Assembly (NCBI GenBank): GCA_903813345.2
Contig: CAIIXF020000011.1
Location: 10,514,842-10,578,841, forward strand
Direction: 5' to 3'
Length of the DNA stretch: 64,000 bases
From: Owenia fusiformis
Taxonomy: Eukaryota; Annelida; Polychaeta; Sabellida; Oweniidae
Part shown: positions 16,093 to 56,037 of the stretch, in pieces
How the letters are laid out: each line of letters begins with the position of its first letter
Position numbering within the stretch: the first letter of the stretch is position 1
Notes under the pieces: model-generated
Database searches by the model: none
The model's input: the letters and a program-made list of their open reading frames with translations, nothing else
What the model was told of the DNA's origin: nothing
Program-made: the position numbers and the translations under genes

Positions 16093-19000
16093 GTAAGGTC
16101 CCTATATTTGAGTCAATGTTAGTCTAACTAGTGGAGTCAATGTTAGTCTAACTAGTGGAGTAGGCTGACTATTTTCCTATGTTTATGCAGACATGATAGT
16201 CAATGTCATAGATTGAGCTATCAGCTTGGGGGGTTGATCAGTTCAAATCAGGGGAATAATGCTCATGGTTATTTAGGGCAAGGCCACACTTGTAGAGTAA
16301 GAAAATATGTGATAGCATTGTCATAGGTGTACGTTTTTGGGTGTTATTACCCCTTTTTGGCTCACATGGTGTGAGTTATTGTTATATTGTCTGTATGTCC
16401 ATCTGTTACGTTTCGTAACTGTTATCTCGGGATCTTGTGGTCCTTCGGTACTCGCAGGGTTCCTGACTACCTAATTGAACACGACTCCTTTGTTTTGTTT
16501 CTTAATTTATTTCAAATTCCAATTCTTCTTGAGATTGATCCGGCCAGCAGAGTTTCGGTAGATTCGCTTGTTATTGTTTCTCCTTTCATCAATTGTTGAG
16601 CATCGTTGTGAGTGAGTAAAACTTACTGAATCAACAGATCTTGCCGACTTCTTTATATACCAGGTAAAATACATTATTTTACCTGTCAAAATTGTGCAAA
16701 TATAAGTAAGAATATTGCTGATTTCATGCTTATGTAAGCAAGATTCAAATCATAATTCTGAGTTGTGATTGGTTGTTGGAAGTTTTAACTTGTCAGAATT
16801 CATTGATATATCTTCGTTTTGGCTGAATATAGTAGCGTAGGGATTCCCCTGTACTAAAGCTAACTGAGGTCTAAATAGTCATTAATCATAAGAAAGCAGC
16901 AAGATCTTTACAATGTTTGAATATGCTGAATATAAATGGTATTTTATATTGGATAATAAATAATAAATAAATAATAAAGTAATTATATATAATTAAATAT
17001 AATTACGTACTGACCGAATCATAACAATCTCCCCTTCTTTAGAAATTAACCATACCTGGTTAATTTACTTTACAATATAAATTATTTATTTATTTATTTT
17101 ATTTTTATTTTATATTTTTAAGATGATATACCACATTCCGGCCGCGCAACAACCCTGTGGGTTGACGTGGTTCCTGGTTCCAATGAATGTGGTGAAAGAC
17201 CAGGATTACTTTCATGCTCCAGAGTTCATAGTTTAATCAACTGTTAAGCTTTATTCATAGTCTCCGTCTTCATATCACTATTAGTGTTTATGAATTGTTG
17301 TAGCAGTATGGATATGCATATGTAAATGTCTCTATCCATTCTCTTCTCTTCATAGCATTTGCTAGGTTCACCTTCAGCGTCCATATTCATTATCGATATC
17401 ACTGATCATAATCCGCATTCAGCGTTCATATGTTGTGTGATCCATTGATAGATGGCACCTGGTGATTCTTTAGTTCATCTTTGTAGGAGCTACTCGTCTC
17501 TGAAGTCATCTTCTTCTTTTGTTATTTTATTAGTGATTAATATATTATCATGTTATAATGGTTAAATAAGGTGAGCAAATATGATTACTATGTGAGTAAT
17601 ATGTATGAATACATGCAATGATGATACTTGACTAAACTTATCTAACTTATCTCTATACCTAACATCTTATATTCAATTTGACTTCGCCATCTATATGACT
17701 TCTTCTTAAAATCTGCCAAACTGTACCTTCCAATAAGGCACTTTCACATGGCAATTAATCGCACTACATGCAGTTAAAACATCTTCCAATAAGATGTTGT
17801 TATACTATATGATAAATATGTGATTAATAAATTAGTGTTAGCATTATTTACAACTCACTTCAGTCAAAGGCACTGAGGTAATATCGGTTAATAAATTATT
17901 CGATCAATTAATTATGTACACCAGGATTATATGTTATGATGATACACACGTTATATTTCATGGTAGTTATCCATGCGCACACACTAAGTGCATTTAGTGC
18001 ATTTATTACTCATGCACTAAATTATTAAAACATGCTTTGAATATATATAGTTGGTTATATGTGATTATATGTATTAGATCAATTAATTATTTACATCTGG
18101 TTCAATTGATCAAAAGGGGATTCTTGAGATGATAGCGTATGAAGTTTGTGAGCCTCTTCTGCGCTCCGGACCGTTTCATTGCCAGAAAGAGGTCTCTAGT
18201 AGAGGCCAATCTCAGACAACTATTAATTCTCAGGTCCTCTAGAAACTGCAGGCTCAAAGGTTAAAAGCATTAGTGTGAAATATGATATATATATACACAT
18301 GCATATATTTAGCAATTTAAGTGAATTCCCCTTTAATTCATGCTTTTCTCATAAAATACATTATCATGCAATGAAATCGTTTCAGTAGTTCAAGTTCAAA
18401 TGGGCAAAATGCATCTTATCATGCTGTTTTATTAACCTAACCTGGACATTTATGTTCCTCCCCTAAATAAGTGATTTCTGCTAAACAGCTGGAACAACAG
18501 GAGGGATCATCTTTCCATTTTTGTATACACTCTACACAACCTAATAGTTCATCTGATGTTAGAATATATTTACACTTGAGGCAAACATGGTGACCACAAG
18601 GGAGACTATGGATATTCATGACTGGATATATACAGTGACATTTGTAACATAATGAGGTCATGTTTATTAATTTGTCTAGCTGTTTGGAGTATACCTTCTT
18701 GCTCAGCGACCAGGAAGGTAAGGTGTTTAACTGGGATTTCACGAATTTACAAAACTCCATAATTTGGGGTAGTCGAATTTTGATTTATTTATTTTATATT
18801 TTGTTTCGTTTTGTCTATTCTCTGCCGGGGTCCAAATTTTTCAGGTTACCTAATTTATAGTGTTTATCTGAAAACTGTCATATTCTTTTCTTTTTTTCAG
18901 TTTCTTTTTCTTTTCCTCTGGAAAAGCCTGTCCTTTACTTAAAGAGCGTTTTGCTCACTGATTCTATAGTGACGTTTTTCATCTCTACATGTTCCGTTAT

Positions 19001-22000
19001 TTGCGGGGAGGAGTCAGGTTGTTGTTCTCTCTCGACCTCTACAACGGGAGGGGGAGACTGCGTCGGCTCCGTCTGGGTAGCCTGGTCTCTGGAGGGCCCC
19101 AGACGCTTCCACAGTTGCCTCTCCGCCACTGAAATTTCAAAACCATTTCCACATTAGGACCTTGCTAAAGGTATTAGGACAAACACGTTATTCTCTAGTT
19201 CGTAGTAAAATCTAATAATATAGGGTTCGGATAGAACATCGCAAATGGACCTTCCATAACCATAAGGCAGGGGAACTTGTGGTGGCAAATTCAAATTCAT
19301 TTCCTCATTGTCCAATATAAATTTAATTTCTCCCCATTCAATGGATAAATTATTTTGAAACAGTCCCTTTTGAACTTGAATACTATTTATAACTCCTCGC
19401 TGAGTCAACTGACACCTTTCATACCCATATTGTAACTTGGTTATTGGTATCGTCATCCGTTGACTCAATGAAGATAATTCTAATATCAATCTAGATTTCC
19501 TATGTACACTTCGCTTTCCGCACACGGCACGCCATGCTTTCAACGTGAACTTAATCGTCATCACTAGTACATAAAATGTCATTATGGTCAATATAATGAT
19601 TGACCAAGTTTGGGTGACATTTGAATATTTCATATTTTCTGAAGTGTGACTCGTAGTAGTATCTCGCATGGACTTTACAACGAATTGGCGACCTTCCACT
19701 TTCATTACACTCTTTATCGACAGAATAGTGGTCAATATAAACTTTATTTTTGTTAGCACATATATATTAGATATGATCGCGATCACAGCCAGAGCAAAAG
19801 AAACATAAATTATCACATCGGTTATATTTATTCCGAAAACGTCCCAATCACCCATCTCAAAACTCAATTGATCCGCCTCTGAAAAATGTAGAGGTCCTTT
19901 CGACCTTACAGCATCCGCAAGACGTTTAACATCTGTTTTTATTATTCCCTCGGATTTGATAGCGTTTTGCCATCTAGCTGATGTCATAGTGACCGGTAGT
20001 TTCTCATGGTTTATCACAGGCTCCACCGAGTCTAATTCGGAGCCGGTCATGTTGACCGTTAATTCTTCATTTATAAAATGATGTATGAATGGTATGTTAA
20101 TAGGATAATTGTACTCGATTTCCATTGAGTCCACAACGCAACCTATTCGCTCAGGTATATAATTATCATTGATCATCAAGGAACAATCACAATTTAGATT
20201 TATTTTACAGTACCTACAAGTAGGTATATGTTTTGAGGGATTACGCTTACAACGCATAACCCAATTGTCTTTTGCCTCAGCATTTATTAAGAATTGATTG
20301 TTAGATATTTTCATAATTTTTGTGCGAACTTCTGACTCTTCTTGATAATGAAAATTGCATAATTTTAGAATATTTTGAACATCGTCCATATATAGAGCTA
20401 GTAAACACGATTTCTTTTGGATAGGCCTCAAATTAGAATACGCATTTTGAGATTGAGAATCATACTTTTCGTTAATTTCGTATTCATCTCTGGTTAGTTC
20501 GAAATAAAAGGAACTTTCTTCATTTAGACCAATATATCTTTGAGGATTATTTAGTATGATTGATTGATTGTCCCGCTGTTGTTCGAGATTCAAATCACGC
20601 GGTATAGGCACTGAGTGAGTTTCCGCATAATATAGAGAATATTTATATCCCGTAGTAGAAATAGGTATTTCAATCATTACATATAAGTGGCTTTTTGTGC
20701 GTGAGTAAGATACAATTGGCTTTTCAAAGAAATACCGAAGTGCAGATTCAGTTATTTCAAAATTTGGAAATTGTAATGACAATTTATTTTTAACCTTATC
20801 CAGTGCTTTCTTTAGATCATTAGCCGAAATGAGATCCGGCGATAAACGTCCAGTGTTAGCCATTTTAATCGCCAGCACGTGTCTATGATACCATGTTTCC
20901 GCAAATTTCAAATTATATATTACTTGACTTAGGTATTTAAAGTACGCTGTCATCAATCCCGTAGTTTTATCAATACTGACTTTTAGTCTTCGAATATTCA
21001 TCTCATCAAGTTGTAGCCTTATATCCGTATTATTTATGTAATTCAACAATTGATTAATGGATTCGTGATTCTGATTAATCATAGAAAACATATTAGTAGA
21101 GCGGTTTTCCGACAATTCCATGAAGTCATGCAATTCATTCTCAAATTGGTTAAATCGGACGGCTGATTTGTTTCCAAAAGTTTCCAAATATTTGACATGC
21201 GAAGCCAATATTTTAAATTTATCCATACTCACTAAACCAAATATTGATGAGACTAGGTTACCTATAGGTTGCAACAGAGCGGCTCTCTTGTTTTTATATC
21301 TGTAATGAGTTTCATTAGGCAACAGCGCTTCAAGATTATTTTGATGCGCTAAAATTTTCTCAGTCAACGTTTTCATAACATCGCGCATTTGTTCACACGT
21401 ACCGGCATGCAATATGCCATTGGGGTTACACGTTAAATCTATTGGTTGATCAATAGCCTTAATTAACGGCAACGTTTCCATTTTAAATGTAAGATGAAAT
21501 GAATCCGATTCCGTTAAATGATTATTCTTGATCTCGACGAACTTTACTCCGTAATTATATCTCCACGGATCCGTGTTTTCTTTTCGGGCGTGTACAAGGT
21601 ATTCTCCCGTGACCATCATCATCATCACAAATTGGTAATATAGCTTCATACTCACTGTTGATCTTCTCTGGAAATAATACTATATTTATAAACGGCTCTT
21701 GTATGAATAGAAGTTCAGTAGAAAAGAAAGAACAATTCGGAACCTATCCTTTAATTGAAATATTTGGGCAACAGGGATACCGACGCTTACCAATAAAAAC
21801 TTAGGATTTTTCTCAGGGACACAGATTTATGCATTCTACTACTCAAGATCCGCCTCTTCTTGGTGACGTAACATGGGTTCTCGGCTAATTCTCTGTCCGA
21901 TATTCTTGAAATACCAACATATGTTTTTAATAACTACTCTTTCAACTTAACATCTCTGATATGTGTTTACCATATTTCTTCATTGATCTGTAAGAACATT

Positions 22001-25000
22001 CACTGTAATATATTTATGTTTCCCGTTTTTATTTATTTTCCCAACAGTGCAGGCCTTTTCTCTCATAATATAGAGGTTTTGACAAATTGCATTGTAGAGT
22101 TAGTTCTTTATCAAGGAAGGGGCCCGTCTTCCCCGACGTAAACATAACCCTTTTTTTTTTCTTGTTATTACAAATAAACACAACACCCCCATCAACTCTC
22201 GGACACACCAAGATCCACATTTGCAATTCATGCATCATCCATGAGCAAACTGTTTCAACCTGGTATATGTCTTCAAGTCGAAATAGGCTGGGTGTTCTCT
22301 GTACCAACATATGTTTCCATTAATAAACCTACACTGTGAAGAAAACACTTTTGCAAATAATAAAGAAATCACTTTCCGGACAGTAATAACTTGATTAATG
22401 CTTTTCTCTACACTTCATACTTCATTAGTATGCAAAATATTTTCTCTTTTCCCCGTCATTTTAACTGGCTTTTGCCTTATTTCTTCTCTTAACTGGGGCG
22501 TCATGTTTGACTCGGGTTCCCATGTAGGAATTTTATAACCCTTCCACTTTATCAAGTATTGCGGTTCTAATTCACCCTTCTTAAAACGACCCCGCAAAAT
22601 CTTTTCTACTTCATAATAGTCATCATAGTGGTTCTGTCCACTTTCGCTTCCACTTTCATTTTCACTATATTCGACGTCTTCATCTTTTGCATTCTCTTCC
22701 GACTTTTCCTTTTCAGTCGGTAATTGTTTACTTCCTATAACACTTCTTGAATGCTTGACCTCTTGTTCAGAATCATTTTGTCGTGGAACTGTATTCTTTC
22801 CAACTTCAGATTCGTCATCCTTTTGCGTAGAATCATTTGGTTGTGAGACTTGGTTAGAAGTATTTTCTTCTTTGTCGTCTTCATCATCAGATTCGAAACA
22901 CTCTCTAGGTAATTCTTCTGCATCCATCATCTCTTCTTCTGTAATTTCCTCTGGGTCATACCCTTCAGGTAATACTTCATTTGGTATTCTTGTGATTCTC
23001 TGCTCGGCTCTTTTTAATCTGCGTACGTTCGCCGGCGTGGGCATTATACGTCCATCCGAGATTCTCCTCAATATGAAGGCATTGTCGGCTTCATTTATTG
23101 ATTTATATAACGTATACGGGCCAGTCCAAAGGTGCAACAACTTCTTGGCCTTTAGACCTTTAATGGCTTTCTTTGGGGTAAACAACATCACCTGTTCCCC
23201 GACCAGTAGTGGCCTTGTATATCCTTCCTTGTCCTTCTGTCTGATCATTTTTTTCTGGTTTAATCTCAATTTTTCTTGTACTATTTTATTTGTCTCATAT
23301 ATTCTACTCTGTATGGTTTCTAGGTGTTCTTGAACTGAATTTGACTTACATGACACCTCCCTTTGTAACACTGTATCAAATGGCATAAATGGTTCCCTTC
23401 CGTACATAATTTGAAAAGGGGAAAACCCATGAACGGTTTTGGTCATTCTATAAGAAGCCATTGCCGCAGGTAACAATACGTCCCAATTCCTGTGATCATC
23501 GGCAATTGAAGACAGGGCTGCCATCAGACTGGCATTATACCGTTCGATTGCTCCTTGGGTCTGAGGACTATAAGCTGAAGATTTGACCTTTTTGACCTTG
23601 AATAAATCGCACAAATTTTCAACAACTTCAGCCATGAAGTTCAAGGCACGATCGTGACTTATCATAAGAGGTGGTCCATATCGGCAAATGATTTCATCAA
23701 ACAATAGACGGGCAATTGTAGAGGCTTTGATATCAGGGACTGCAAAACATTCAGGGAACTTTGACAGTCTGTCCACAAAAGAAACGATATATTTATTACC
23801 GTGTTCTGTTTGCATTAATGGACCCAAACAATCTAACTCCAACCAGGCGAAGGCAGAATCAGGAATTTCCAAAGGGAGTAGACGACCTCGAGTATACCTG
23901 GGGGGTCTTTTCCTAGCAAGACATGTTTCACAAGAACGAACCCAATTGATTACATCTTTGTTCATGGTAGTCCAGAAATATCTTTGTCTTACGACATCGA
24001 TTAATCTGTGTATGCCTGTATGTCCACAGGTCGTCTGGTCATGATGTTGAGTGAGGATTTCATCAATCAATCCTCTGGGAACTACCAATTGTTCCTTACA
24101 TCTTGATAATTTAGTTCCCGGACCGTCTGGATACCAGAGATGGTATAAAATACCGTCTCGGTAGACAAAATCAGCTGCTTTGAGCAGGATTTTCCTGGCT
24201 TGAATATCATTACCAGGCAATAATTGATTCTCTAGATAATTTATCAAAGGTCTCCATTCTTCATCTAGTTTTTGTAGCTTACCGAGCATTTCTAGGTTCA
24301 AACCTGGTATGCCGTCTTGTTTATCCTCATCAGCTGGAGATATTGGTGCGCTAGCAGCAGGTTGTAGTGACCTTGCACTGACTGTCCTCTCACTAGGCAC
24401 GGAATTCACGCTTAACAATTCAGTTAAACCTGACAAATCTTCAGGGTCTTCTGTTGGAAGATCTGGATGTTGCATTCTAGACAAAAAGTCTGCAGGAACC
24501 ATCTTGGCACCTGATCTATGCAGTATATCATAATTGTATTGCTGCAAATGCATTATCCACCTGGCTAATCTACCTGTAGGTTCTTTCACTGGCAAAAGCC
24601 ACTTCAAAGAACGATTGTCTGTTACCACAGTGAACTTGCTGTATCTAAGGTAATTGTTGAACTTCTTTGTTCCAAACACGACCGCTAAAGCCTCTTGTTC
24701 ATGAGTGGGATATCTTTTTTCTGTTTCAGATAGATTTCTCCCAGCATACGCTACCGGATGTTCAACTCCATCGGTAACTTGGCTTAACACTACTCCTAAC
24801 GATTCATTTGACGCATCAGTCAACAAGAGAAAGGGTTTCTTGAAATCAGGGTATTTGAGTAAAGGAGCCTCAGTCAATTTCTTTTTCAATTCTTGAAAAG
24901 CTTCCTCGCAAACAGCACTCCATTCAAAAGGAACACCCTTCTTAGTCAACCTATAGAGTGGCCTAGCTATCTGAGAGTGATGACTCAAAAACCTTTTGTA

Positions 25001-28000
25001 GAAATTGACCATCCCTAAGAATCGTCTTAACTTTTTCAAGGTAGTAGGTGACTTGCAGTCTAACACAGCCTTGACATTTGAACTTGTGGGAGCAATTCCT
25101 GAAGATGACACATCGTGTCCCAAATATCGAACTTTCTCTACAAATAACTTGCATTTTGAAGGTTTCAACTTCAATCCAGCCTTGGATAATCTATCCAATA
25201 CCTGACCCAAATGCTCGAGATGTTCTTCAAAGGTGTTGGAGAATATGCATAAATCATCAATATAGCAGATGACTGTTTTCCATTGCAATCCGGCTAATAC
25301 TAATTGCATAACTCTCTGGAAGAAACTAGCTGAGTTAATCAATCCCTGGGGTAACCGTTTGTATTGGAACAACCCTTCATGACAAACAAATGCAGTCTTT
25401 TCTCTTGACCCATCGTCTTCTAAAGGCAATTGGTGATATCCTTGACATAAATCAAGACAACTTATGAACTTTGGTTGGACTAAACCCAAGCTATCTAAAC
25501 AATCTCCTAGATGTGGTATAGGAAATTTATCAGGTATGATTTGCTGATTCAGCTTTCTTAAATCTGTCACGAAACGGAATGATCCATTCGATTTATTGAC
25601 CAATATTATAGGTGACGCATAAGGTGAAGTTGACGGTTCAATAATTCCTTGGGACAACATATCTTTGACTTGTCTGCTTATTTCATCTCGTTTCTGAACT
25701 GGTACTCTATATGGGGATTGGCGAAATGGTACTTCCCCTGGCTTTGTTTTTATTTTGAGTTTGAGCAGGTCGCAATAACCTAACTTGCCGGTGGAATCTA
25801 CAAAAGCATCTGAGTATTTGTTTACCATTTTATGAACCTTGACCTTTTGTTCTGGAGTTAACTTTGAATTTGATAGATCTATCTTGACTTTCTCATTTCT
25901 TTTTTCAAAAGTGTTTGTACTGTGCTCACCGTCTAATGAGAGTGTGTTAATTCCTTTCCTTGAACTGACAAATGTACCTACGCTGGTATTTTTAGGCACT
26001 TTTATCGCGCGTTTTTCCGGGTTTAAAAGTTTCATTGGAACAAGACCATTTGTAATTGTACCTATGCTTTTAGCTGTAAATACATTGGATCGCGAATTCA
26101 CCGCTAAACATTCGCCTATAAGGTTTTCCGGAGGTCTACCCTTGACCTTTGCATAAACAATCATTTCCGTCTGAGGAGGTATAATGATTTCTTGGTTCAA
26201 AATGAGAGGATATTTATTGAGCGGCTTCAATCTCAACTTTCTGACATTGAAATCAATCACAGCTTCATGTTTGTTCAGAAAATCGGCACCTAATATTATT
26301 TTTCTTCTCAATCCTCGGATGACATATAACATTATCGGAATACTTACCTTTCCAAAGGTCATTTTTGTGAAAATTTTTCCTCTTAAATTCAATCTTTCAT
26401 TTCCGGCTCCAACAGGTTTGATATGAAATTCAGGATATATTTTTATATCATAATCCTTTATGGATTCTAAATGTTCCTCATCAATCAATGATATCTGAGC
26501 ACCTGTGTCTACGAGACACCATACTGTGCTGTTAAATAATTTTGTCTTTATCGCATTATCTTGATATAAATTTTCCTGAATTTCAATATCTCCGATAAAT
26601 TTCTTGCGAGGATTGCTATTTACATATTTCTTCGGCCGTGACTTCAGTTCTCGCTTCTCTAGACGCGGCCTTCGGCGTTTAAAGAGTTAACTGGACGTGT
26701 CTGATTGACATTTTGCCTATTTTTGGCCAAGCAAAACTTTGCTATGTGACCTTGACCTGAACAATTGTAACAGCGGATATTTTGATTATTGAATGACCTT
26801 GAACTACTTCTCCTACAAAATGGCGCTGAATGTCCCTTCCTGAAACATTTTTGGCAAGTCGGCCTTCCATCAATGAATCTATTGTTGGCAGTATTTTTCC
26901 CTTTTTCTCTGCTAAGTTGGGATACTTTTTCAGTCAAAGATTTGATAGCTTTTTGCTGATTTTCTACTATATTACACATTAAGTTTTGTGTATCTACCTT
27001 GCTTTTGTCATTTTCAGCTTCCTTATCTACTTGATTCAAACAATCAGCTAGTCTGGCTGCTGACTCTACAGCGGCAAGATCATTTGGTTCTTTTGAGATC
27101 ACAAATTTCCTTATGTTTGGGAGAAAATTTTTGATTAAAATTGTTTTATGTTCATTTTCCTCCAACTGTAAGCGCGAGGCTAATCGCCTTATATCAGTCA
27201 TGAATTCTTCAACTGATTCATTTGGCTTCTGATTTCTCGAGAGTAATTGAGCTTGTATGTTCCATTTTGGCCTGTTTCCCACAAAATATTGCGTAAAAGC
27301 AGTTTGAAGTGCTTCAAAATCATGTTGAGTGTCTTCTGGAAGATTATTATACCATAATTCGGCTTGACTTCCCAAAAACATACGCATGGCTCTAGCTTTT
27401 CTTTCATTGTTCCACCCCTGTAAATCGCCATAGGCATTGTACCTATTAACCCAATTCAGCGGGTCGATATCCGAAGAATTACCATCAAATGTTTTTATTC
27501 TATTTTTACCTTCAATTTCATTTCTATTTTGAGCTTGATTTTCTAACCTATTTAATCTTTCTTGCAATTCAGCATTATTACCTTGTCTAGCTATTAATTG
27601 ATCTAACTGACCTTGTAAATCTGGGTTCTGAGCTGTTTCTAATTGTCTTAACCTAGCATCTATAGCTTCCATATTGTTAGTTACTCTTCGTGTTATCATC
27701 TATTATGATTTATTATGATATACATTCGAACCCTGTTTTCCTACAAACCACTGATTTATGAACGGTATTTAATCATTTGTTCTAAACTTAACTTCTCGCT
27801 TGGCATTTTAGAGAAAAAATTATGTTAGTATGATGTACGATGAAAACATGCTTTTTTCATGCAGTTAGCTTATACTTACATAACCGTTCTTTCTTTTACC
27901 TAGGGCAGCTTCCACCAATTGTTACGTTTCGTAACTGTTATCTCGGGATCTTGTGGTCCTTCGGTACTCGCAGGGTTCCTGACTACCTAATTGAACACGA

Positions 28001-31000
28001 CTCCTTTGTTTTGTTTCTTAATTTATTTCAAATTCCAATTCTTCTTGAGATTGATCCGGCCAGCAGAGTTTCGGTAGATTCGCTTGTTATTGTTTCTCCT
28101 TTCATCAATTGTTGAGCATCGTTGTGAGTGAGTAAAACTTACTGAATCAACAGATCTTGCCGACTTCTTTATATACCAGGTAAAATACATTATTTTACCT
28201 GTCAAAATTGTGCAAATATAAGTAAGAATATTGCTGATTTCATGCTTATGTAAGCAAGATTCAAATCATAATTCTGAGTTGTGATTGGTTGTTGGAAGTT
28301 TTAACTTGTCAGAATTCATTGATATATCTTCGTTTTGGCTGAATATAGTAGCGTAGGGATTCCCCTGTACTAAAGCTAACTGAGGTCTAAATAGTCATTA
28401 ATCATAAGAAAGCAGCAAGATCTTTACAATGTTTGAATATGCTGAATATAAATGGTATTTTATATTGGATAATAAATAATAAATAAATAATAAAGTAATT
28501 ATATATAATTAAATATAATTACGTACTGACCGAATCATAACACATCCATCTGTCTTATGTTCAGGTGTTGTTTCCTAAAATTAACACTCAATGCTGTGCA
28601 GCTCATGCAAATTTTTGAAAGCAACATCTTCAAGGAATGGTCAATCCACATTGCACTGAGTCCAGTGCTTAAATCCTTAAACCATTAACAGAAACTACAA
28701 ATAAATTTTTAAGCTGGACTTAATGAAGATGCAGCAGATAGACAAGACATCCATTGCCTGTTCCTCCATCCATCAAGAAGAAAATTACAACAGAAGAAGC
28801 GAGAAGAAACCAATAGAAACTAAAATAAGATTTTCAAGTTGGACATAATATGACATGAATAGCATACATCAGTCACATTGGTGGCTAATTATAAATTCTC
28901 TCAGACAATTCAAATGGTTTCACATTTAAAATGTGTCTGTAAAAAGTATCTATAAGTGACGTCTTAATTCAAAATGGCAACCATTTTTAGCTCACATGGT
29001 GAGCTATTGCAATCACTCACTTGTCTGTCTGTCGTCCATCTGTCTGTCAACAATTGGCCCGCTGTAAAACCTCTGTTTTGATTTTGTTCATATTTGGTAT
29101 GTGAATACTATAAGCATGGCACACTGTCTAATGACATTTTTGGTAGAAGGTGGCCATTTTGAAAAAGGGCTGCCATTTTTGCTATATAGTTTGTTTGTAA
29201 ATATGCCAGCCATGGCTGTTTGATGGGATTTGCTACGCATTGGCGTTGCTGTTGTCTAGTTTTCCTATACAAGGTTTTGCATGGCACCCTTGAGTATACA
29301 GTATAATACCTAATAAATTCTGTTCCATTTGTAATGTACTTCAGGAGATTCAGCTATGACTTCCAGAAGAAATTGATGATAATGGAGGAGGGCAACAACA
29401 ACCACGTTGCTATGGATGTTACCATGACAGCGGGGCGCAAAGGATCATTGACAGGGGACTCTGAGGCAGATCTGAGCATGTTACAGCAGAGGAAGGATGA
29501 AGCCCTCACCCCCATGAAGGAAGACCTTGCAGATTGGCTACAGAACACTCTAAGTATATATGTTTGAAAATTGATTATAAAAACAGAAAATAACAGAAGA
29601 AGTAATTCAGTCACTACCGGTTTCACTTTTATTCTTCAGGTAACTGATTATCATTTATCATTATGTATATATGTATCCATGTTACTTAATGTTTCAAGGT
29701 GTATTATGCATAGATTAGATGTCACTTGTTTTGAATCCTGTGTTGACTGTTCAAAGAGTAACTTAATCCTGATCAAATTTATAAGAACAAGTGACACAAT
29801 TAAAAAAGGAAAATTTAAGATTTGTAAAGAAGGAAACCTCTAACACAGACAAGGATCTTACTTAAAGAGAAACAATTGTCTAACACCTCACTCTCTTTCC
29901 CAATCAAGTTATTACTATGTTATCACTGACCAAGATTTAAACAGTTTTTAATGAATTTTGAATTAATGAGAACTTGTATTTACAGGTTGTATTTACAGGT
30001 TCTATTAAAGTGTTTTTTTTCCTTTTCAAAACCTTGGTACGGCATGTTGTATAATATAATACTGATTTTTACTTACACATTTGGAGTGGATAGTCATCTT
30101 TCATTCCATGTAAAGAAAACAGAAACTAATAAAATATTAATGGAGTGGAGGTTGTGACAATGACTCCTACTCTTAGCAATTTTCAGAATGTTTCGTCCAG
30201 TGCTATTAATGAGGGCCCCACCTTAATTCAATTACAATTTTTGGGCTTAGTTCTTTAAAGCATTATATACTATTATTATCATATAACAGTATTTCTATAA
30301 TTGCAGTATGGTAGCTGCCCTGTCAACCCTCGCGCATTAGGCATGATTGTCGCGCATTTGCTTGAAAAAATGAAATCATGCGATTTTGCGTGTATGATAA
30401 AAGACAAAAAAAGCGAACGCATTCTGTTTGGACTTTTCAAACGAATTCCATATATGTCACGCATTTGCTTCAAAATATGTGTAAAGCTTGGTACACCCTA
30501 GTTAGATCTTATCTTGTATATTAATGTGTAATAATTTTTGGAGTTCACCAGTTATCGTTGTTTGGCAAATGATTTGGCAAGAGCAGGCTATGAAATTCGA
30601 GTCATCGCTATGTGTTGGTTGGTATGGAGAATAAGGTCACAATTATTCAGTGGGAATTTCCTAACAACGTCTTAACACTTTCACTCTCATTACTAGAACA
30701 TTGAAATACATTTCATTCATTTGAGTTACATATCTCACACAAGACACCCTAAGGCATATACGACGTATGTGTGGTAGGATAATGTTACTCGATATCTGAA
30801 GGTAAAAACAGCTCTTACACGAACTGGTATCTTTCTCCTGGCAAGGACCACAGACAGTTCAAGCCAGCACAGGGCCAGCTCCCTTGCCACATGCTGGGAT
30901 TGACCTTGACCTTGGCCTTCAATTATAAAGAGTTTGTGGTTATTGAAATGAATCAACCATGCCCTTGATAGTTATTTGTATTTGTATTTAGTTTAATCTC

Positions 31001-52260: not shown

Positions 52261-55200
52261 TTTTTTTTTTTTTAATAATCATTTATTTCAAATATATACT
52301 ATACATACAATAATACAATAATAACGTTTGACAAGGTTAAAAATAACATTATTGTCAAACTGAAAACCTTAATGTAGTTACATTCATAATTTTTACTTTA
52401 GAAAGAAAGATTCATTATTTTATTTAAAATGGTCAAGTTGTGTGCTTAATGTGTAGAGTTTGGTTACGGGTCCAGTAGGTCTTTGGTGGATTGCAAAAAT
52501 GACACACTTGCTTTGATTATTAAAATATTAGTATTATGATCAAAATCAGGGTGACCAAATAAAAGCATGTCTATTTTATCAGAAGAATTACAATCTAAAA
52601 ATGCACTTAAGCAATCCGCCATATGGAGATCTCTAAGGAGTTGACATCTTGGGTTCATGTATAGAGGGCACTGTAGAAAAAAGTGTTTTGGTGTTTCAGA
52701 GCAATGACCACAGGCACATTCTGGTGAAGGTACATTGTTAAAATTATGTGCAAAAAGCTGGCTTTTCAAATAAAGATCTACTCTGAGTCTATTAAATGAG
52801 ACTTCATTTTTTCTTTTAACATTACTATAAGTTATGAAATTAGTACCATTGAAATTTTCAAAATGTGCCTTGATCCTACGTTTAAAAATTGAAATTCGCT
52901 CACAATTTCTTATATCATCAGGTAAAGTATTCCAAGTTTCAATTGCTGCATAGAAAGTAGATTTCTCAAATCTTTTACTTATATCTAAAGGAATATTATA
53001 TTCTCTGAAAGCTCTTAGAGTTCGAGTTGGAATATTTCTGCAACCATTGAAAACTTGACTTACATATGGTGCTATTAAATTATGTCTGCTTTTGAAAAGA
53101 AAAGTACATAAATGAGATTTTCTTCTATCTGGTAACTTTGTCCAATTTAAAATATCTAACACCTTCTCAGTGCTAGAGCCATGCAAAGCGCCAGTTATCA
53201 AACAAGCTGCATTATATTGAAGTCTGTTTAACTTTATCAAAGATAATTCAGGAGCACTAGAATATAAGATATCACCATAGTCAATTCGACTCAAAATGAA
53301 GGCATTATAAATGGTTTCTAAGTGTTTAGATCTTAAAACATGAGTCAACCTTTTAAAAGGGTTTAGCAGAGCTTGAGACTGTTTTATTAATTCGTTAATA
53401 TGCTCTTTAAAGGTTAGTTTTTGATCTAAAATGATACCCAGGTGCTTATGGGTATTTTGTTTATCTATTGCGTTAGTTCCCAAAAATAAAATTGGTTCAT
53501 TTTGAATAACAGTTGTTGGTGAAGTGAAAGTCAAGTCAACCGATTTTGAGGCTTTAAAGTTCATTTGCCATGTTTGGGCCCAGTTATATATTTTGTTAAG
53601 ATCTTGTTGTAAATCAAGACAATTTTGTGGCTGATCTTTTGGATAGGGGCTAAAAATTGAAGTATCATCTGCATAGATAAACGTTTTGGATTTTAAATTA
53701 GTTGGTAGATCATTTATATAGATAAGAAACATCAAAGGCCCTAAGATGCTACCCTGGGGTACACCTGCATTTAGAAAGTTTGGTTCAGACAAATTTGAAA
53801 GTTTTTCATTTATCTTGACTTTAACCTGTCTACCAGAAAGATAGGACTTTAAAAGCAAGAGTAAGTCATCTTTTATACCATAAGCTGATATTTTATGAAG
53901 CAAAAGATGATGAGGGACAACATCAAATGCTGATGCAAGGTCCAAAAAGATTGTACGGACATTGTTACCATTATTTAACTCCTCGTGGATACAATGAATA
54001 ATATAGGCAAGTTGAGATGTGGTATTATGTAAAGGGAGAAAACCAGATTGGAGGTCATAGAAAAGATTATTCTGACTCATGTGATTAAAGATTCTATTGT
54101 AAAGCACTTTTTCTAAGATTTTGGACATTGAATTTAAAATTGTTATTGGTCGATAGTTTTCAATATTTGATTTATCTTTCTTCTTATGGAGAGGTATTAT
54201 GATACCCTCTTTCCAAACCTTTGGGAATGAATGTGAATTTAATATCTTATTAAACAATAATGAAAGAGGACTGGCTAAACTGTTTGCAGAATAAAATAAC
54301 ATCCTATTTGTGATACCATCACTGCCACCCCCCTTTGATAAATCTAAATCTTTCAATAATTTTAAAACTTCTTCTTCACTAGTTTGTATACTACATAAAT
54401 TATTGTTGCATAAAGTAGGAAACTCTGGTAACACTTCTGGATGGACAATATTAATATGATTTTTCTGGGTAAAAAATTTGAGAAAAAGTTCAGCCTTTTC
54501 AATAGAAGTACCTGATAATTTAGGATTTTCTAAATGTAAAAAAGGCAGTGATGTGTCAAAGGATTTACCTAGCAATTTCTTAAGAAGTACCCAATAGTCT
54601 GATGAGTTTGAATTAAGAATAGATATATTTTCACAAGTATTTTCAATATACGATTGTTTAGCTTCTTTAATTAATTTGACTACCTTATCACTCTGTGTCT
54701 TAAATTTAGTAAAAAAGTCAGGATTATTTGAACGTTTGAATTTGTGATGCAATCTGTCACGAATGTTGATCTCTTTTTTGATGTTAGGGGAGAACCATGG
54801 TTGATCTGTAGATTTGTGATTAATCTCAAAATTGGGTATACAATTTTTGAAAATATCAAAAAGGCTATTTGAGAATCTTTCAGTAGCAATGTCAACATCA
54901 TCCAAAAGAAGGATTTCATCCCAATTGAAGCTGATAATTCTATCATTTAAGTCATTTGAGTCCATATGATCGTACTTCCAAATAGTTTTCTTAGTAGGTG
55001 GTTCCTTTAGAATATTTACCCTTAAGTTTGTCAAAATTGAACAGTGATCTGAATTTCCAATAGGGGCCATCACTTTAAAATGAGAGATAACATTGATTTC
55101 ATCAGTAAAAACAAGGTCAATACATGATTTGGTTAATAATTCCTCTCGCTTCCGAATTCTAGTTGGTTCATCTATAAGTTGAATGATATTTAAGTCAGAT

Positions 55201-56037
55201 GTTAAGTTTTGAAGATTTAATCCAGGATTATCAGTTTTATCATCACTCCACCAAAAACTATTTCTAGCATTGAAATCGCCATTTACAATTAAGGTTCCAG
55301 GCAATTTCTGAGCAGTCTCAAGATTTGTAGACAACAACTGAAAAAATGTATTGCGAGTTGCTTGATCCTGAGAGGGAGACCGATAAAATAATCCATAATT
55401 AAAATATTTTCCACTTATTTTCAGCTTTATCCAAACGTTTCCAAGAATGTCATTCATAAGATCATGAATTATTTCAGATTCAATTGAGTTATGAACATAA
55501 ATAATTAATCCACGGTTTTTATTAGTATAATAGAGGATTTGAAAATCATTGATAATCAAGGAGTTTTCCACATCATTTTTTGTGAGATTTCCCACTTCGC
55601 AGAGACCAATTACTTTTATGTCATGTTGCTTAACCCTAAATTTAAGGGCTTCAAATCTTGATAAGTAATTTGCTTTAAGACTATTTATGTTAGAAAATAG
55701 GATTGGTAACTCATTTATAGAGTTTTCAATATGAGGTCCAGGATTTGATTCAATATCCCCGCTGAGTTTCAATATAAATGTGCAATCAACTAGGTACATC
55801 AAAAGTGGTGAACCTGGAAAAATAGTCATAATACAGAGTATTCTGTGGAATCTCACACTGAAAAGAATATACGATTTAGTGCAAGATGACCAAGCAATAG
55901 CATAAATACAGTATACAAGACACGGGCCAATAACTGAATGATATAATACACATAGGAGCATAATTTGAAGTTTCCAGAAACGTTCTGCTTGGATGTTAAT
56001 TTTCAGTAAAGTAAGAATCAGAATGAATCAGAATCAG
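52261..56037 (-). mobile_element. Full-length LINE (Jockey/CR1/L2-like non-LTR retrotransposon)
   Basis: 3,777 bp with a 13-nt poly-A tail (T run at 52261-52273), an AATAAA upstream of it, one intact ORF and a 76-bp 5' UTR. It is flanked by the 11-bp duplication AAAAGTAGAAT (52250-52260 and 56038-56048). Inserted in an ERM intron in the sense direction. An intact ORF and perfect TSD mean a recent insertion. Confidence 0.96.
52464..55961 (-). CDS. LINE ORF: 2A-like leader, AP endonuclease, reverse transcriptase
   Basis: 1165 residues from an ATG. Residues 1-60 are hydrophobic; GDIESNPGP at 68-76 fits the 2A consensus D-x-E-x-N-P-G-P, so ribosome skipping before Pro76 is expected. AP-like endonuclease from about 85: SNINSLKAN, GLCEVGN, NGDFNARNSFWWSD and the SDHCSIL end motif. 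Reverse transcriptase: YRPITILNSMSKILEKVLYN, FLDLASAFDVVPHHLL, GVPQGSILGPLMFLIYINDL and YADD at 763-766. A Cys/His cluster near the C terminus (CACGHC...HFFLQC) may bind nucleic acid. Clade by motif only: Jockey/CR1/L2 group. 2A-bearing LINEs of this kind have been described in sea urchin and amphioxus. Confidence 0.95.
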   Translation of the reverse strand: MLLCVLYHSVIGPCLVYCIYAIAWSSCTKSYILFSVRFHRILCIMTIFPGSPLLMYLVDCTFILKLSGDIESNPGPHIENSINELPILFSNINSLKANYLSRFEALKFRVKQHDIKVIGLCEVGNLTKNDVENSLIINDFQILYYTNKNRGLIIYVHNSIESEIIHDLMNDILGNVWIKLKISGKYFNYGLFYRSPSQDQATRNTFFQLLSTNLETAQKLPGTLIVNGDFNARNSFWWSDDKTDNPGLNLQNLTSDLNIIQLIDEPTRIRKREELLTKSCIDLVFTDEINVISHFKVMAPIGNSDHCSILTNLRVNILKEPPTKKTIWKYDHMDSNDLNDRIISFNWDEILLLDDVDIATERFSNSLFDIFKNCIPNFEINHKSTDQPWFSPNIKKEINIRDRLHHKFKRSNNPDFFTKFKTQSDKVVKLIKEAKQSYIENTCENISILNSNSSDYWVLLKKLLGKSFDTSLPFLHLENPKLSGTSIEKAELFLKFFTQKNHINIVHPEVLPEFPTLCNNNLCSIQTSEEEVLKLLKDLDLSKGGGSDGITNRMLFYSANSLASPLSLLFNKILNSHSFPKVWKEGIIIPLHKKKDKSNIENYRPITILNSMSKILEKVLYNRIFNHMSQNNLFYDLQSGFLPLHNTTSQLAYIIHCIHEELNNGNNVRTIFLDLASAFDVVPHHLLLHKISAYGIKDDLLLLLKSYLSGRQVKVKINEKLSNLSEPNFLNAGVPQGSILGPLMFLIYINDLPTNLKSKTFIYADDTSIFSPYPKDQPQNCLDLQQDLNKIYNWAQTWQMNFKASKSVDLTFTSPTTVIQNEPILFLGTNAIDKQNTHKHLGIILDQKLTFKEHINELIKQSQALLNPFKRLTHVLRSKHLETIYNAFILSRIDYGDILYSSAPELSLIKLNRLQYNAACLITGALHGSSTEKVLDILNWTKLPDRRKSHLCTFLFKSRHNLIAPYVSQVFNGCRNIPTRTLRAFREYNIPLDISKRFEKSTFYAAIETWNTLPDDIRNCERISIFKRRIKAHFENFNGTNFITYSNVKRKNEVSFNRLRVDLYLKSQLFAHNFNNVPSPECACGHCSETPKHFFLQCPLYMNPRCQLLRDLHMADCLSAFLDCNSSDKIDMLLFGHPDFDHNTNILIIKASVSFLQSTKDLLDP

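What the first reader, a model, noticed from the sequence alone, without database searches (positions are those of the whole stretch)
16404..28542. Young Ty3/gypsy element combining chromodomain integrase, env-like glycoprotein and RING ORF
Chromodomain-bearing Ty3 elements normally lack env, and env-bearing errantiviruses normally lack a chromodomain. Here both sit in one intact element with an extra zinc-finger ORF in the accessory-gene position. That points to an infectious-type lineage that kept chromatin-guided integration. The open ORFs and matching LTRs mean it may still be active. This is the best candidate for an undescribed system in the window.
Basis: partly seen in the sequence, partly recalled or inferred. 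Interest (0 to 1): 0.88.

Follow-up and report, generated by a model that had tools for sequence, protein, structure and literature searches.

The report
Envelope-bearing chromodomain retroelement with RING gene
This is a very young, virus-like jumping element in a probably animal genome that carries both a chromatin-reading integrase and an envelope gene of the cell-entry type, plus a small zinc-binding gene that other element families in the same genome also share.

Summary
Window 16404-28542 (minus strand) is a complete Ty3/gypsy element: two 623-bp LTRs without one difference, target duplication CATC, gag, a pol behind a canonical -1 slip heptamer (TTTAAAC), an integrase with GPY motif and chromodomain, an 831-aa env (furin-type site, fusion-peptide-like segment, two membrane spans) and a 107-aa RING-type ORF. 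It is no one-off chimera: all five copies outside a cluster on contig C8 (the window's included) have RT, env and RING ORF; four of these could be checked for the chromodomain and have it. Two further families, with env 34-37% and 20-23% identical, also pair a chromodomain pol with env. In quick trees without named references pol lies among mostly chromodomain-bearing relatives, so a chromovirus-type element with env is likelier than an errantivirus with an added chromodomain. The RING ORF keeps 12 invariant zinc ligands, is under purifying selection between copies, and recurs inside LTRs of another gypsy family. Some related RT copies have no env match. I found no description of this layout in the papers searched, but the key survey of metazoan env-bearing gypsy elements was not held. 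Infectivity, RING activity and chromatin targeting are inferred.

The parts
16400..16403 (.). target-site duplication CATC, left copy
   Evidence: sequence read directly
16404..17026 (-). 3' LTR, 623 bp
   Evidence: 0 of 623 differences from the 5' LTR
17027..17040 (-). polypurine tract AAAGAAGGGGAGAT next to the 3' LTR
   Evidence: sequence; role inferred
18437..18760 (-). accessory ORF, 107 aa: RING (C3HC4) plus a further C2HC zinc site
   Evidence: dN/dS 0.13-0.27 between copies
18527..18649 (-). RING ligands C38 C41 C55 H57 C60 C63 C75 C78
   Evidence: invariant in 7 of 7 aligned sequences
18446..18496 (-). third zinc site C89 C92 H103 C105
   Evidence: invariant in 7 of 7 aligned sequences
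19154..21649 (-). env, 831 aa, class I / F-type-like fusion glycoprotein
   Evidence: 61 matches in the genome; dN/dS 0.19-0.34; fold not shown
21284..21295 (-). furin-type site KNKR in env (aa 119-122)
   Evidence: KTKR in family 2, RHKR in P0001, RRHRR in family 3
21227..21283 (-). fusion-peptide-like segment behind the furin-type site
   Evidence: role inferred
19769..19825 (-). first membrane span of env (aa 609-627); a second lies at aa 684-702
   Evidence: hydropathy
22415..26686 (-). pol, 1423-aa open frame: protease, RT, RNase H, integrase, GPY, chromodomain
22478..22615 (-). chromodomain at the integrase C-terminus; aromatic-cage positions read Y, W, Y
   Evidence: Pfam Chromo 7.3e-9; CBX5/HP1 2.1e-8; cage positions recalled from HP1
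23114..23122 (-). GPY motif of the integrase
26677..26683 (-). slippery heptamer TTTAAAC inside the 28-nt gag/pol overlap, in register for -1 frameshifting
   Evidence: the same heptamer at the gag/pol junction of family 2
26659..27699 (-). gag, 346 aa, two CCHC knuckles
27899..27917 (-). candidate primer-binding site TGGTGGAAGCTGCCCTAGG, 2 nt inside the 5' LTR
   Evidence: sequence; its first 13 nt also follow the 5' LTR of the C5 and C4 copies; tRNA not identified
27920..28542 (-). 5' LTR, 623 bp
28543..28546 (.). target-site duplication CATC, right copy
   Evidence: sequence read directly

Best explanation
An intact, very recent insertion of an env-bearing, chromovirus-type Ty3/gypsy element (an endogenous-retrovirus-like element). 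Inferred cycle: LTR-driven genomic RNA; Gag, and Gag-Pol by -1 slippage at TTTAAAC; reverse transcription from a primer-binding site and a polypurine tract; Env from a sub-genomic (spliced) RNA, cut at KNKR and fusing membranes through the segment behind it, so that particles can pass from cell to cell, most plausibly from soma to germ line; integrase makes a 4-bp stagger and its chromodomain steers insertion towards H3K9-methylated chromatin; the RING-C2HC protein acts as a small E3-ligase-type accessory factor against a host restriction or silencing protein. Shown here: anatomy, LTR identity, target duplication, slip heptamer, domain content, the same modules in other copies, recurrence of the chromodomain-env pair in three families, purifying selection on env, pol end and RING ORF between copies. 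Inferred: frameshifting, splicing, fusion, cell-to-cell transfer, chromatin targeting, RING activity.
For: LTRs 0/623 different, TSD CATC. C5:20.2 Mb copy: LTRs 627 bp identical, TSD CATG; C4 copy: LTRs 626 bp identical. Chromodomain. Env: 8 copies at 93-100% identity over at least 806 of 831 aa without a stop inside; furin-type site shared with family 2 and P0001 and family 3, six cysteines invariant. RING ORF: 10 copies at 88-100% over at least 106 of 107 aa, 12 invariant ligands. dN/dS: RING 0.13-0.27, env 0.19-0.34, pol end 0.13-0.22. Family 2: gag 48.5%, pol 52%, Chromo 1.7e-7, env 34-37%. Family 3: Chromo 2.3e-8 and env with RRHRR site. Pol: 34 of 43 rows of its starred set bear a chromodomain, against 5 of the 79 other listed proteins.
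Against: Env has no Pfam, PHROG or single-sequence PDB match; its family profile reaches gp41 only at 0.0074, among other coiled-coil proteins at 0.22 and worse; the AlphaFold model is useless (pLDDT 29.5), so the F-type fold is not shown. No RNA fold above shuffles behind the slip site (z 0.09). Adding family 3 to the pol tree leaves the order of the families open; no careful tree finished. Some RT copies lack an env match. The C4 copy's flanks differ in one base (TTAT/TTAC). No transcripts or small RNAs could be examined.
Confidence: 0.8

Rival explanations
1. An errantivirus (insect-type env-bearing gypsy lineage) that secondarily gained a chromodomain.
For: It has the gag-pol-env layout of errantiviruses and an env with furin-type site and fusion-peptide-like segment.
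Against: The integrase has a GPY motif, which errantivirus integrases are said to lack (PMC5408687, passage); pol's relatives in its starred set mostly bear a chromodomain; three divergent families share the pairing. No errantivirus reference could be put in the tree.
Confidence: 0.12
2. A one-off chimera or nested insertion that only looks like one element.
For: The C7 copy has its RING ORF about 9.3 kb from env, so interrupted copies exist; some RT copies lack an env match.
Against: Identical LTRs and one target duplication bracket all ORFs; RT, env and RING ORF recur in 5 of 5 copies outside the C8 cluster; the two other copies examined at their ends have identical LTR pairs of their own.
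Confidence: 0.02
3. The RING-like protein is not a ubiquitin ligase but a zinc-binding nucleic-acid or Gag-binding factor, for instance in RNA export or packaging.
For: Only 107 aa; no Pfam RING match for the window sequence and weak ones for a family-2 relative and in the PDB; the extra C2HC site is unusual for a plain RING.
Against: Ligands in C3HC4 order in 7 of 7 sequences; Pfam zf-C3HC4_3 at 9.3e-6 for the LTR-encoded relative.
Confidence: 0.35
4. Env no longer serves entry; the element moves only within cells and env is kept by hitch-hiking.
For: Divergence grows from pol end to RING ORF between window and C4 copy (dS 0.055, 0.118, 0.357), so the 3' part evolves or recombines apart; related RT copies without env match exist.
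Against: Env has no stop inside in the best 8 copies and dN/dS is 0.19-0.34, not expected of a dead passenger.
Confidence: 0.12

Closest known systems
Chromoviruses (chromodomain-bearing Ty3/gypsy; PMC2774666 and PMC3601003, passages)
   Same: PR-RT-RH-IN order, GPY motif, C-terminal chromodomain, mostly chromodomain-bearing pol neighbours
   Different: Carries env and a RING-type ORF; about 165 aa, much of it acidic, lie between GPY and the chromodomain. Not tested against named chromovirus references
Errantiviruses / insect endogenous retroviruses (gypsy, ZAM)
   Same: gag-pol-env layout, env with furin-type site and fusion-peptide-like segment; F-type env of this group described in PMC12992720 (passages)
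   Different: GPY motif and chromodomain present; extra RING-type ORF; env with two membrane spans and a long C-terminal part
Metazoan env-carrying gypsy elements (Chary and Hayashi 2025, eLife 108449)
   Same: Env-bearing gypsy elements outside insects are already reported, as cited in PMC12992720 and PMC13172572 (passages)
   Different: Not held, so whether it lists chromodomains or RING ORFs is unknown to me
Class 1 vertebrate retroviruses (gamma, epsilon)
   Same: PMC5408687 (passage) states that chromodomains occur in their integrases, which also travel with env
   Different: That passage ties the term to the GPY/F region; as I recall, these integrases lack a classical chromodomain such as the Pfam Chromo match here. 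Not tested
Bdelloid rotifer LTR elements with captured ORF3s (PMC5408684)
   Same: Different element families of one genome share an accessory ORF type
   Different: There GDSL, DEDDy and a paramyxovirus-type F; no chromodomain in any lineage (passage)

Membership tests
Metaviridae (Ty3/gypsy) | pol order PR-RT-RNase H-IN and RT kinship | tested here: met
   (Ty3 Gag-Pol 1e-107)
Metaviridae (Ty3/gypsy) | LTRs with TG..CA ends and short target duplication | tested here: met
   CATC
Chromovirus | chromodomain at the integrase C-terminus, after GPY/F | tested here: met
Chromovirus | RT/IN phylogeny inside the chromovirus branch | tested here: inconclusive
   43-row starred set with 34 chromodomain rows; no named references; order open once family 3 is added
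Errantivirus | F-type env downstream of pol | tested here: inconclusive
   motif layout fits; no Pfam match; fold not obtained
Errantivirus | integrase without GPY/F | tested here: not met
   GPY at pol aa 1189; criterion from PMC5408687 passage
Errantivirus | RT phylogeny inside errantiviruses | not tested
   no errantivirus reference sequence was at hand
RING-type E3 ligase | C3HC4 ligands in cross-brace order | tested here: met
   8 ligands in 7 of 7 sequences; profile support only for one relative, just under the cut-off
RING-type E3 ligase | E2-dependent ubiquitin transfer | not testable with these tools
   needs a bench assay

The most novel reading that the evidence does not exclude
The genome harbours an ancient set of infectious chromoviruses (env plus chromatin-reading integrase, three or more families), served by a transferable RING-C2HC accessory gene that other gypsy families encode inside their own LTRs, a retrotransposon counterpart of retroviral accessory factors against host defence; and the host answers with a strand-biased trap locus of such elements on contig C8, resembling the flamenco piRNA cluster.
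Probability: 0.35. Interest if true: 0.8.

Novelty: new variant of a known kind. Interest (0 to 1): 0.62.

Why it matters
Env and a chromodomain are usually treated as marks of two lifestyles of gypsy elements: moving between cells, and aiming insertions at chromatin. Their union in three divergent families lets one ask whether an element that may enter the germ line from outside still benefits from landing in silent chromatin. A selected RING-type gene shared by different gypsy families, in some of them inside the LTR, would be an accessory gene of a kind known from retroviruses but not met for gypsy elements in the paper searches made here. The strand-biased cluster would give a test of piRNA control over env-bearing elements.

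Tried and rejected
One-off chimera: rejected. ORF 22029-22310 between pol and env: rejected as a gene, because in six of the loci that hold it the frame is split by indels (it is whole in the L005 copy), while the stretch stays 95-97% identical at DNA level in four of five copies compared (the fifth, L003, gave no match). Family 3 was first misread by me as having no pol upstream, because the ORF list leaves out frames open at the edge of a fetched stretch; searches corrected this. Troyka (3-bp duplication, CG..CG ends, no env; PMC12440569 abstract and passages): rejected. A structured frameshift stimulator: not found by MFE folding (pseudoknots not tested). Env structure: model unusable, so no fold search was made; RING model poor too (pLDDT 44.1). 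Env relatives in viral contigs: none confirmed. Env in a 5.8-billion-protein set: one relative, P0001 (word-based, only scored candidates). The C244 copy (fourth env lineage) seems deleted between RT and env, so its chromodomain could not be tested. Genome-wide count of LTRs (solo LTRs): not obtained, the search did not complete. Host species: not identified.

Paper searches, listings only. Passages read: PMC12992720, PMC2774666, PMC12910113, PMC5408687, PMC5408684, PMC5803895, PMC4131045, PMC8220671, PMC13172572, PMC11599104, PMC3601003, PMC12440569. None of these listings or passages described chromodomain plus env plus RING ORF in one element. No supplement and no whole paper was read.
Full report
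What is there. On the minus strand, 16404-28542 is one LTR element: 623-bp LTRs at 16404-17026 and 27920-28542 with no difference, ends TGTTAC...ATAACA, and the 4-bp duplication CATC outside both ends. Reading 5' to 3': primer-binding candidate 2 nt inside the 5' LTR, gag (346 aa, two CCHC), a 28-nt gag/pol overlap with T TTA AAC in the gag frame, the canonical -1 slip pattern (recalled), pol (protease DTGA, RT YIDD, GPY, chromodomain), env (831 aa), RING-type ORF (107 aa), about 1.4 kb without a listed ORF of 60 aa or more on this strand except one running into the LTR, polypurine tract, 3' LTR. Family 2 has the same heptamer at its gag/pol junction. Folding of the RNA just 3' of the slip site gave nothing above shuffles (z 0.09).

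Age and copies. With 0 of 623 differences the divergence of the two LTRs is below about 0.5% (rule of three). The C5:20.2 Mb copy has 627-bp LTRs without differences and duplication CATG; the C4:13.8 Mb copy has 626-bp LTRs without differences but TTAT/TTAC as flanks. LTRs of the C4, C5 and one C8 copy differ by 3-5% from the window's, others by about 10%, so several sub-lineages inserted recently. No host rate is known, so I give no years. The RT segment has 144 scored matches of 901 candidates: 10 at 93-100% (family 1), 4 at 64-65% (family 2), the other 130 at 40-48%. Env has 61 matches, the RING ORF 64; all are lower bounds. The five copies outside contig C8 (C11, the window's own, C5 twice, C4, C7) each have RT, env and RING ORF; in the C7 copy the RING ORF lies about 9.3 kb beyond env. 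The pol end was within the fetched flank of four of the five (L001, L002, L005, L007) and has the chromodomain in all four; for the fifth (L004) the flank did not reach it. Of the five family-1 RT copies on C8, four have an env match within 7 kb on the same strand and one (14097369) has none within 10 kb; the family-2 RT copy on C6 (36625481) and two of eight family-3 RT copies (C4:7009338, C8:10266782) have no env match listed.

Chromodomain. Pfam Chromo 7.3e-9; HP1/CBX5 structures 2.1e-8. The three aromatic-cage positions known from HP1 (recalled) read Y, W, Y. About 165 aa, much of it acidic, separate it from the GPY motif.

Pol kinship. Of 120 listed relatives (1449 passed the threshold of 1e-50; only the best 120 were listed, and only 7980 candidates were scored), 25 carry Pfam Chromo in the precomputed column; a profile grown from the window's own domain finds it in 37, including all 25. 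In a tree of 117 rows (the window plus 116 of 121 candidates; five were too short or too long and were dropped) the window and family 2 join at 100 and sit in a 43-row set supported at 99; 34 of these 43 bear the domain, against 5 of the 79 other listed proteins. The nearest neighbours P0012, P0002 and P0015 bear it, but those joins are only at 81-94. With family 3 added, the smallest starred set that holds the window beyond family 2 has 32 rows, 29 with the domain, and the order of window, family 3 and P0012 is open. The careful tree did not finish; all trees shown are quick ones.

Env. Signal-like start, furin-type KNKR at aa 119-122, AALLQPIGNLVSSIFGL behind it, spans at aa 609-627 and 684-702, nine N-glycosylation motifs; six cysteines (415, 431, 467, 487, 489, 504) are invariant in the five sequences. 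The cut site and the segment behind it recur with KTKR in family 2 and RHKR in P0001, a protein from a JGI contig, and with RRHRR in family 3; in the C244 piece only the segment is present, the frame opening behind the cut site. P0001 and family 3 resemble baculovirus F and gypsy Env there as I recall them; that is a lead, not a test. Pfam, PHROGs and single-sequence PDB searches found nothing over a cut-off; the family profile reached gp41 at 0.0074, then a toxin, coronavirus S2 and other coiled coils at 0.22 to 10. The structure model is unusable.

RING ORF. In 7 aligned sequences (window family 2 rows, family 2 two rows, LTR-encoded and other relatives three rows) all eight RING ligands and four further ligands (C89, C92, H103, C105) are invariant. 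dN/dS between copies is 0.13-0.27 (undefined for the nearest copy with 1 difference, dS saturated for cross-family pairs). Five pairs of relatives, 46-47% identical, lie 11.6-12.9 kb apart, and one pair, 44%, lies 22.2 kb apart. At C11:4.80-4.82 Mb the pair lies inside two LTRs of about 2.4 kb, 99.8% identical, with 4-bp CGTC flanks read; at C12:32.7 Mb likewise inside repeats of 2.2 kb, 99.4% identical, whose ends I did not resolve. These two elements have gypsy pols, 34-40% identical to the window's in the RT part and 29-30% in the integrase part, and no chromodomain in the stretches fetched. The other pairs were not examined.

Three families, one pairing. Family 2 (C199): gag 48.5%, pol 52% with one stop before its last part, Chromo 1.7e-7 in that part, then env 34% with stops; its RING ORF is seen beside a family-2 env at C8 (L016, 38.6%). 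Family 3 (C1, C11 and other copies): pol with RT 43%, GPF and Chromo 2.3e-8, env 20-23% identical, then a 219-226-aa ORF with two CxxC pairs and no Pfam match. C244 is a fourth env lineage in a copy that looks deleted between RT and env.

The C8 locus. 43 of 61 env matches lie in C8:13.83-14.15 Mb, 0.065% of the assembly; 41 of 43 are on the plus strand; of 27 RING matches there 26 are (counts). Merged within 3 kb they are 24 units, 22 plus (p 3.6e-5); within 6 kb 14 of 16 (0.004); within 10 kb 10 of 12 (0.04). The seven RT matches of families 1 and 2 there are 5 plus, 2 minus. Tandem duplication could also give one strand, and no small RNA was seen, so a flamenco-like role is a lead only.

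Mosaic 3' ends. For window against the C4 copy dS is 0.055 at the pol end, 0.118 in env and 0.357 in the RING ORF, and the env-RING spacer aligns over only 82 of 393 nt: the 3' third recombines between sub-lineages or evolves faster.

Print. Nine paper searches and passages of twelve papers showed no element with this layout (list in Tried and rejected). Two things bear against novelty: env-bearing gypsy elements across metazoans are already reported (Chary and Hayashi 2025, seen only as cited; not held), and PMC5408687 states that class 1 retroviral integrases have chromodomains (passage), a use of the word that seems to mean the GPY/F region.

Verdict. The feature is real; its layout is confirmed and recurrent. 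I file it under Ty3/gypsy; it works, by inference, like an endogenous retrovirus, and its pol is most likely of chromovirus type. I do not file it as an errantivirus, since the GPY test was not met. Whether the layout is already in print stays open.

Noticed in passing
C8:13796094-14156352 of the same genome (among others loci L003, L006, L008-L013, L015-L024, L026-L030): Dense cluster of env and RING copies of families 1 and 2, nearly all on one strand (41 of 43 env, 26 of 27 RING matches), reminiscent of a flamenco-type piRNA cluster; tandem duplication not excluded.
   Followed up: partly
L043:1720-4129 and L044:5359-7768 (C11:4.80-4.82 Mb); L045:1373-3573 and L046:5740-7941 (C12:32.7 Mb): Other gypsy elements whose long terminal repeats (about 2.2-2.4 kb) each contain a RING-C2HC ORF; the C11 element also has an 821-aa gag-type ORF and a 445-aa ORF with C2H2-like spacing (read by eye, no Pfam match) behind pol.
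   Followed up: partly
L031, L032, L036, L037, L039, L040 (C1:41.59 Mb, C11:17.56 Mb, C10:27.50 Mb): Third chromodomain-plus-env family; RT at eight places with nearly equal scores, env matched at six of them; env is followed by a 219-226-aa ORF with two CxxC pairs of unknown kind.
   Followed up: partly
window 52464-56027, minus strand: Large non-LTR-type ORF (1187 aa, stop to stop) whose N-terminal part holds GDIESNPGP, which resembles a 2A ribosome-skipping motif (motif recalled).
   Followed up: no
L004 (C5:5.48 Mb) and C7:1.73-1.74 Mb: Two copies of the family have longer gaps than the window (RT to env in the first, env to RING ORF in the second), suggesting later insertions.
   Followed up: no
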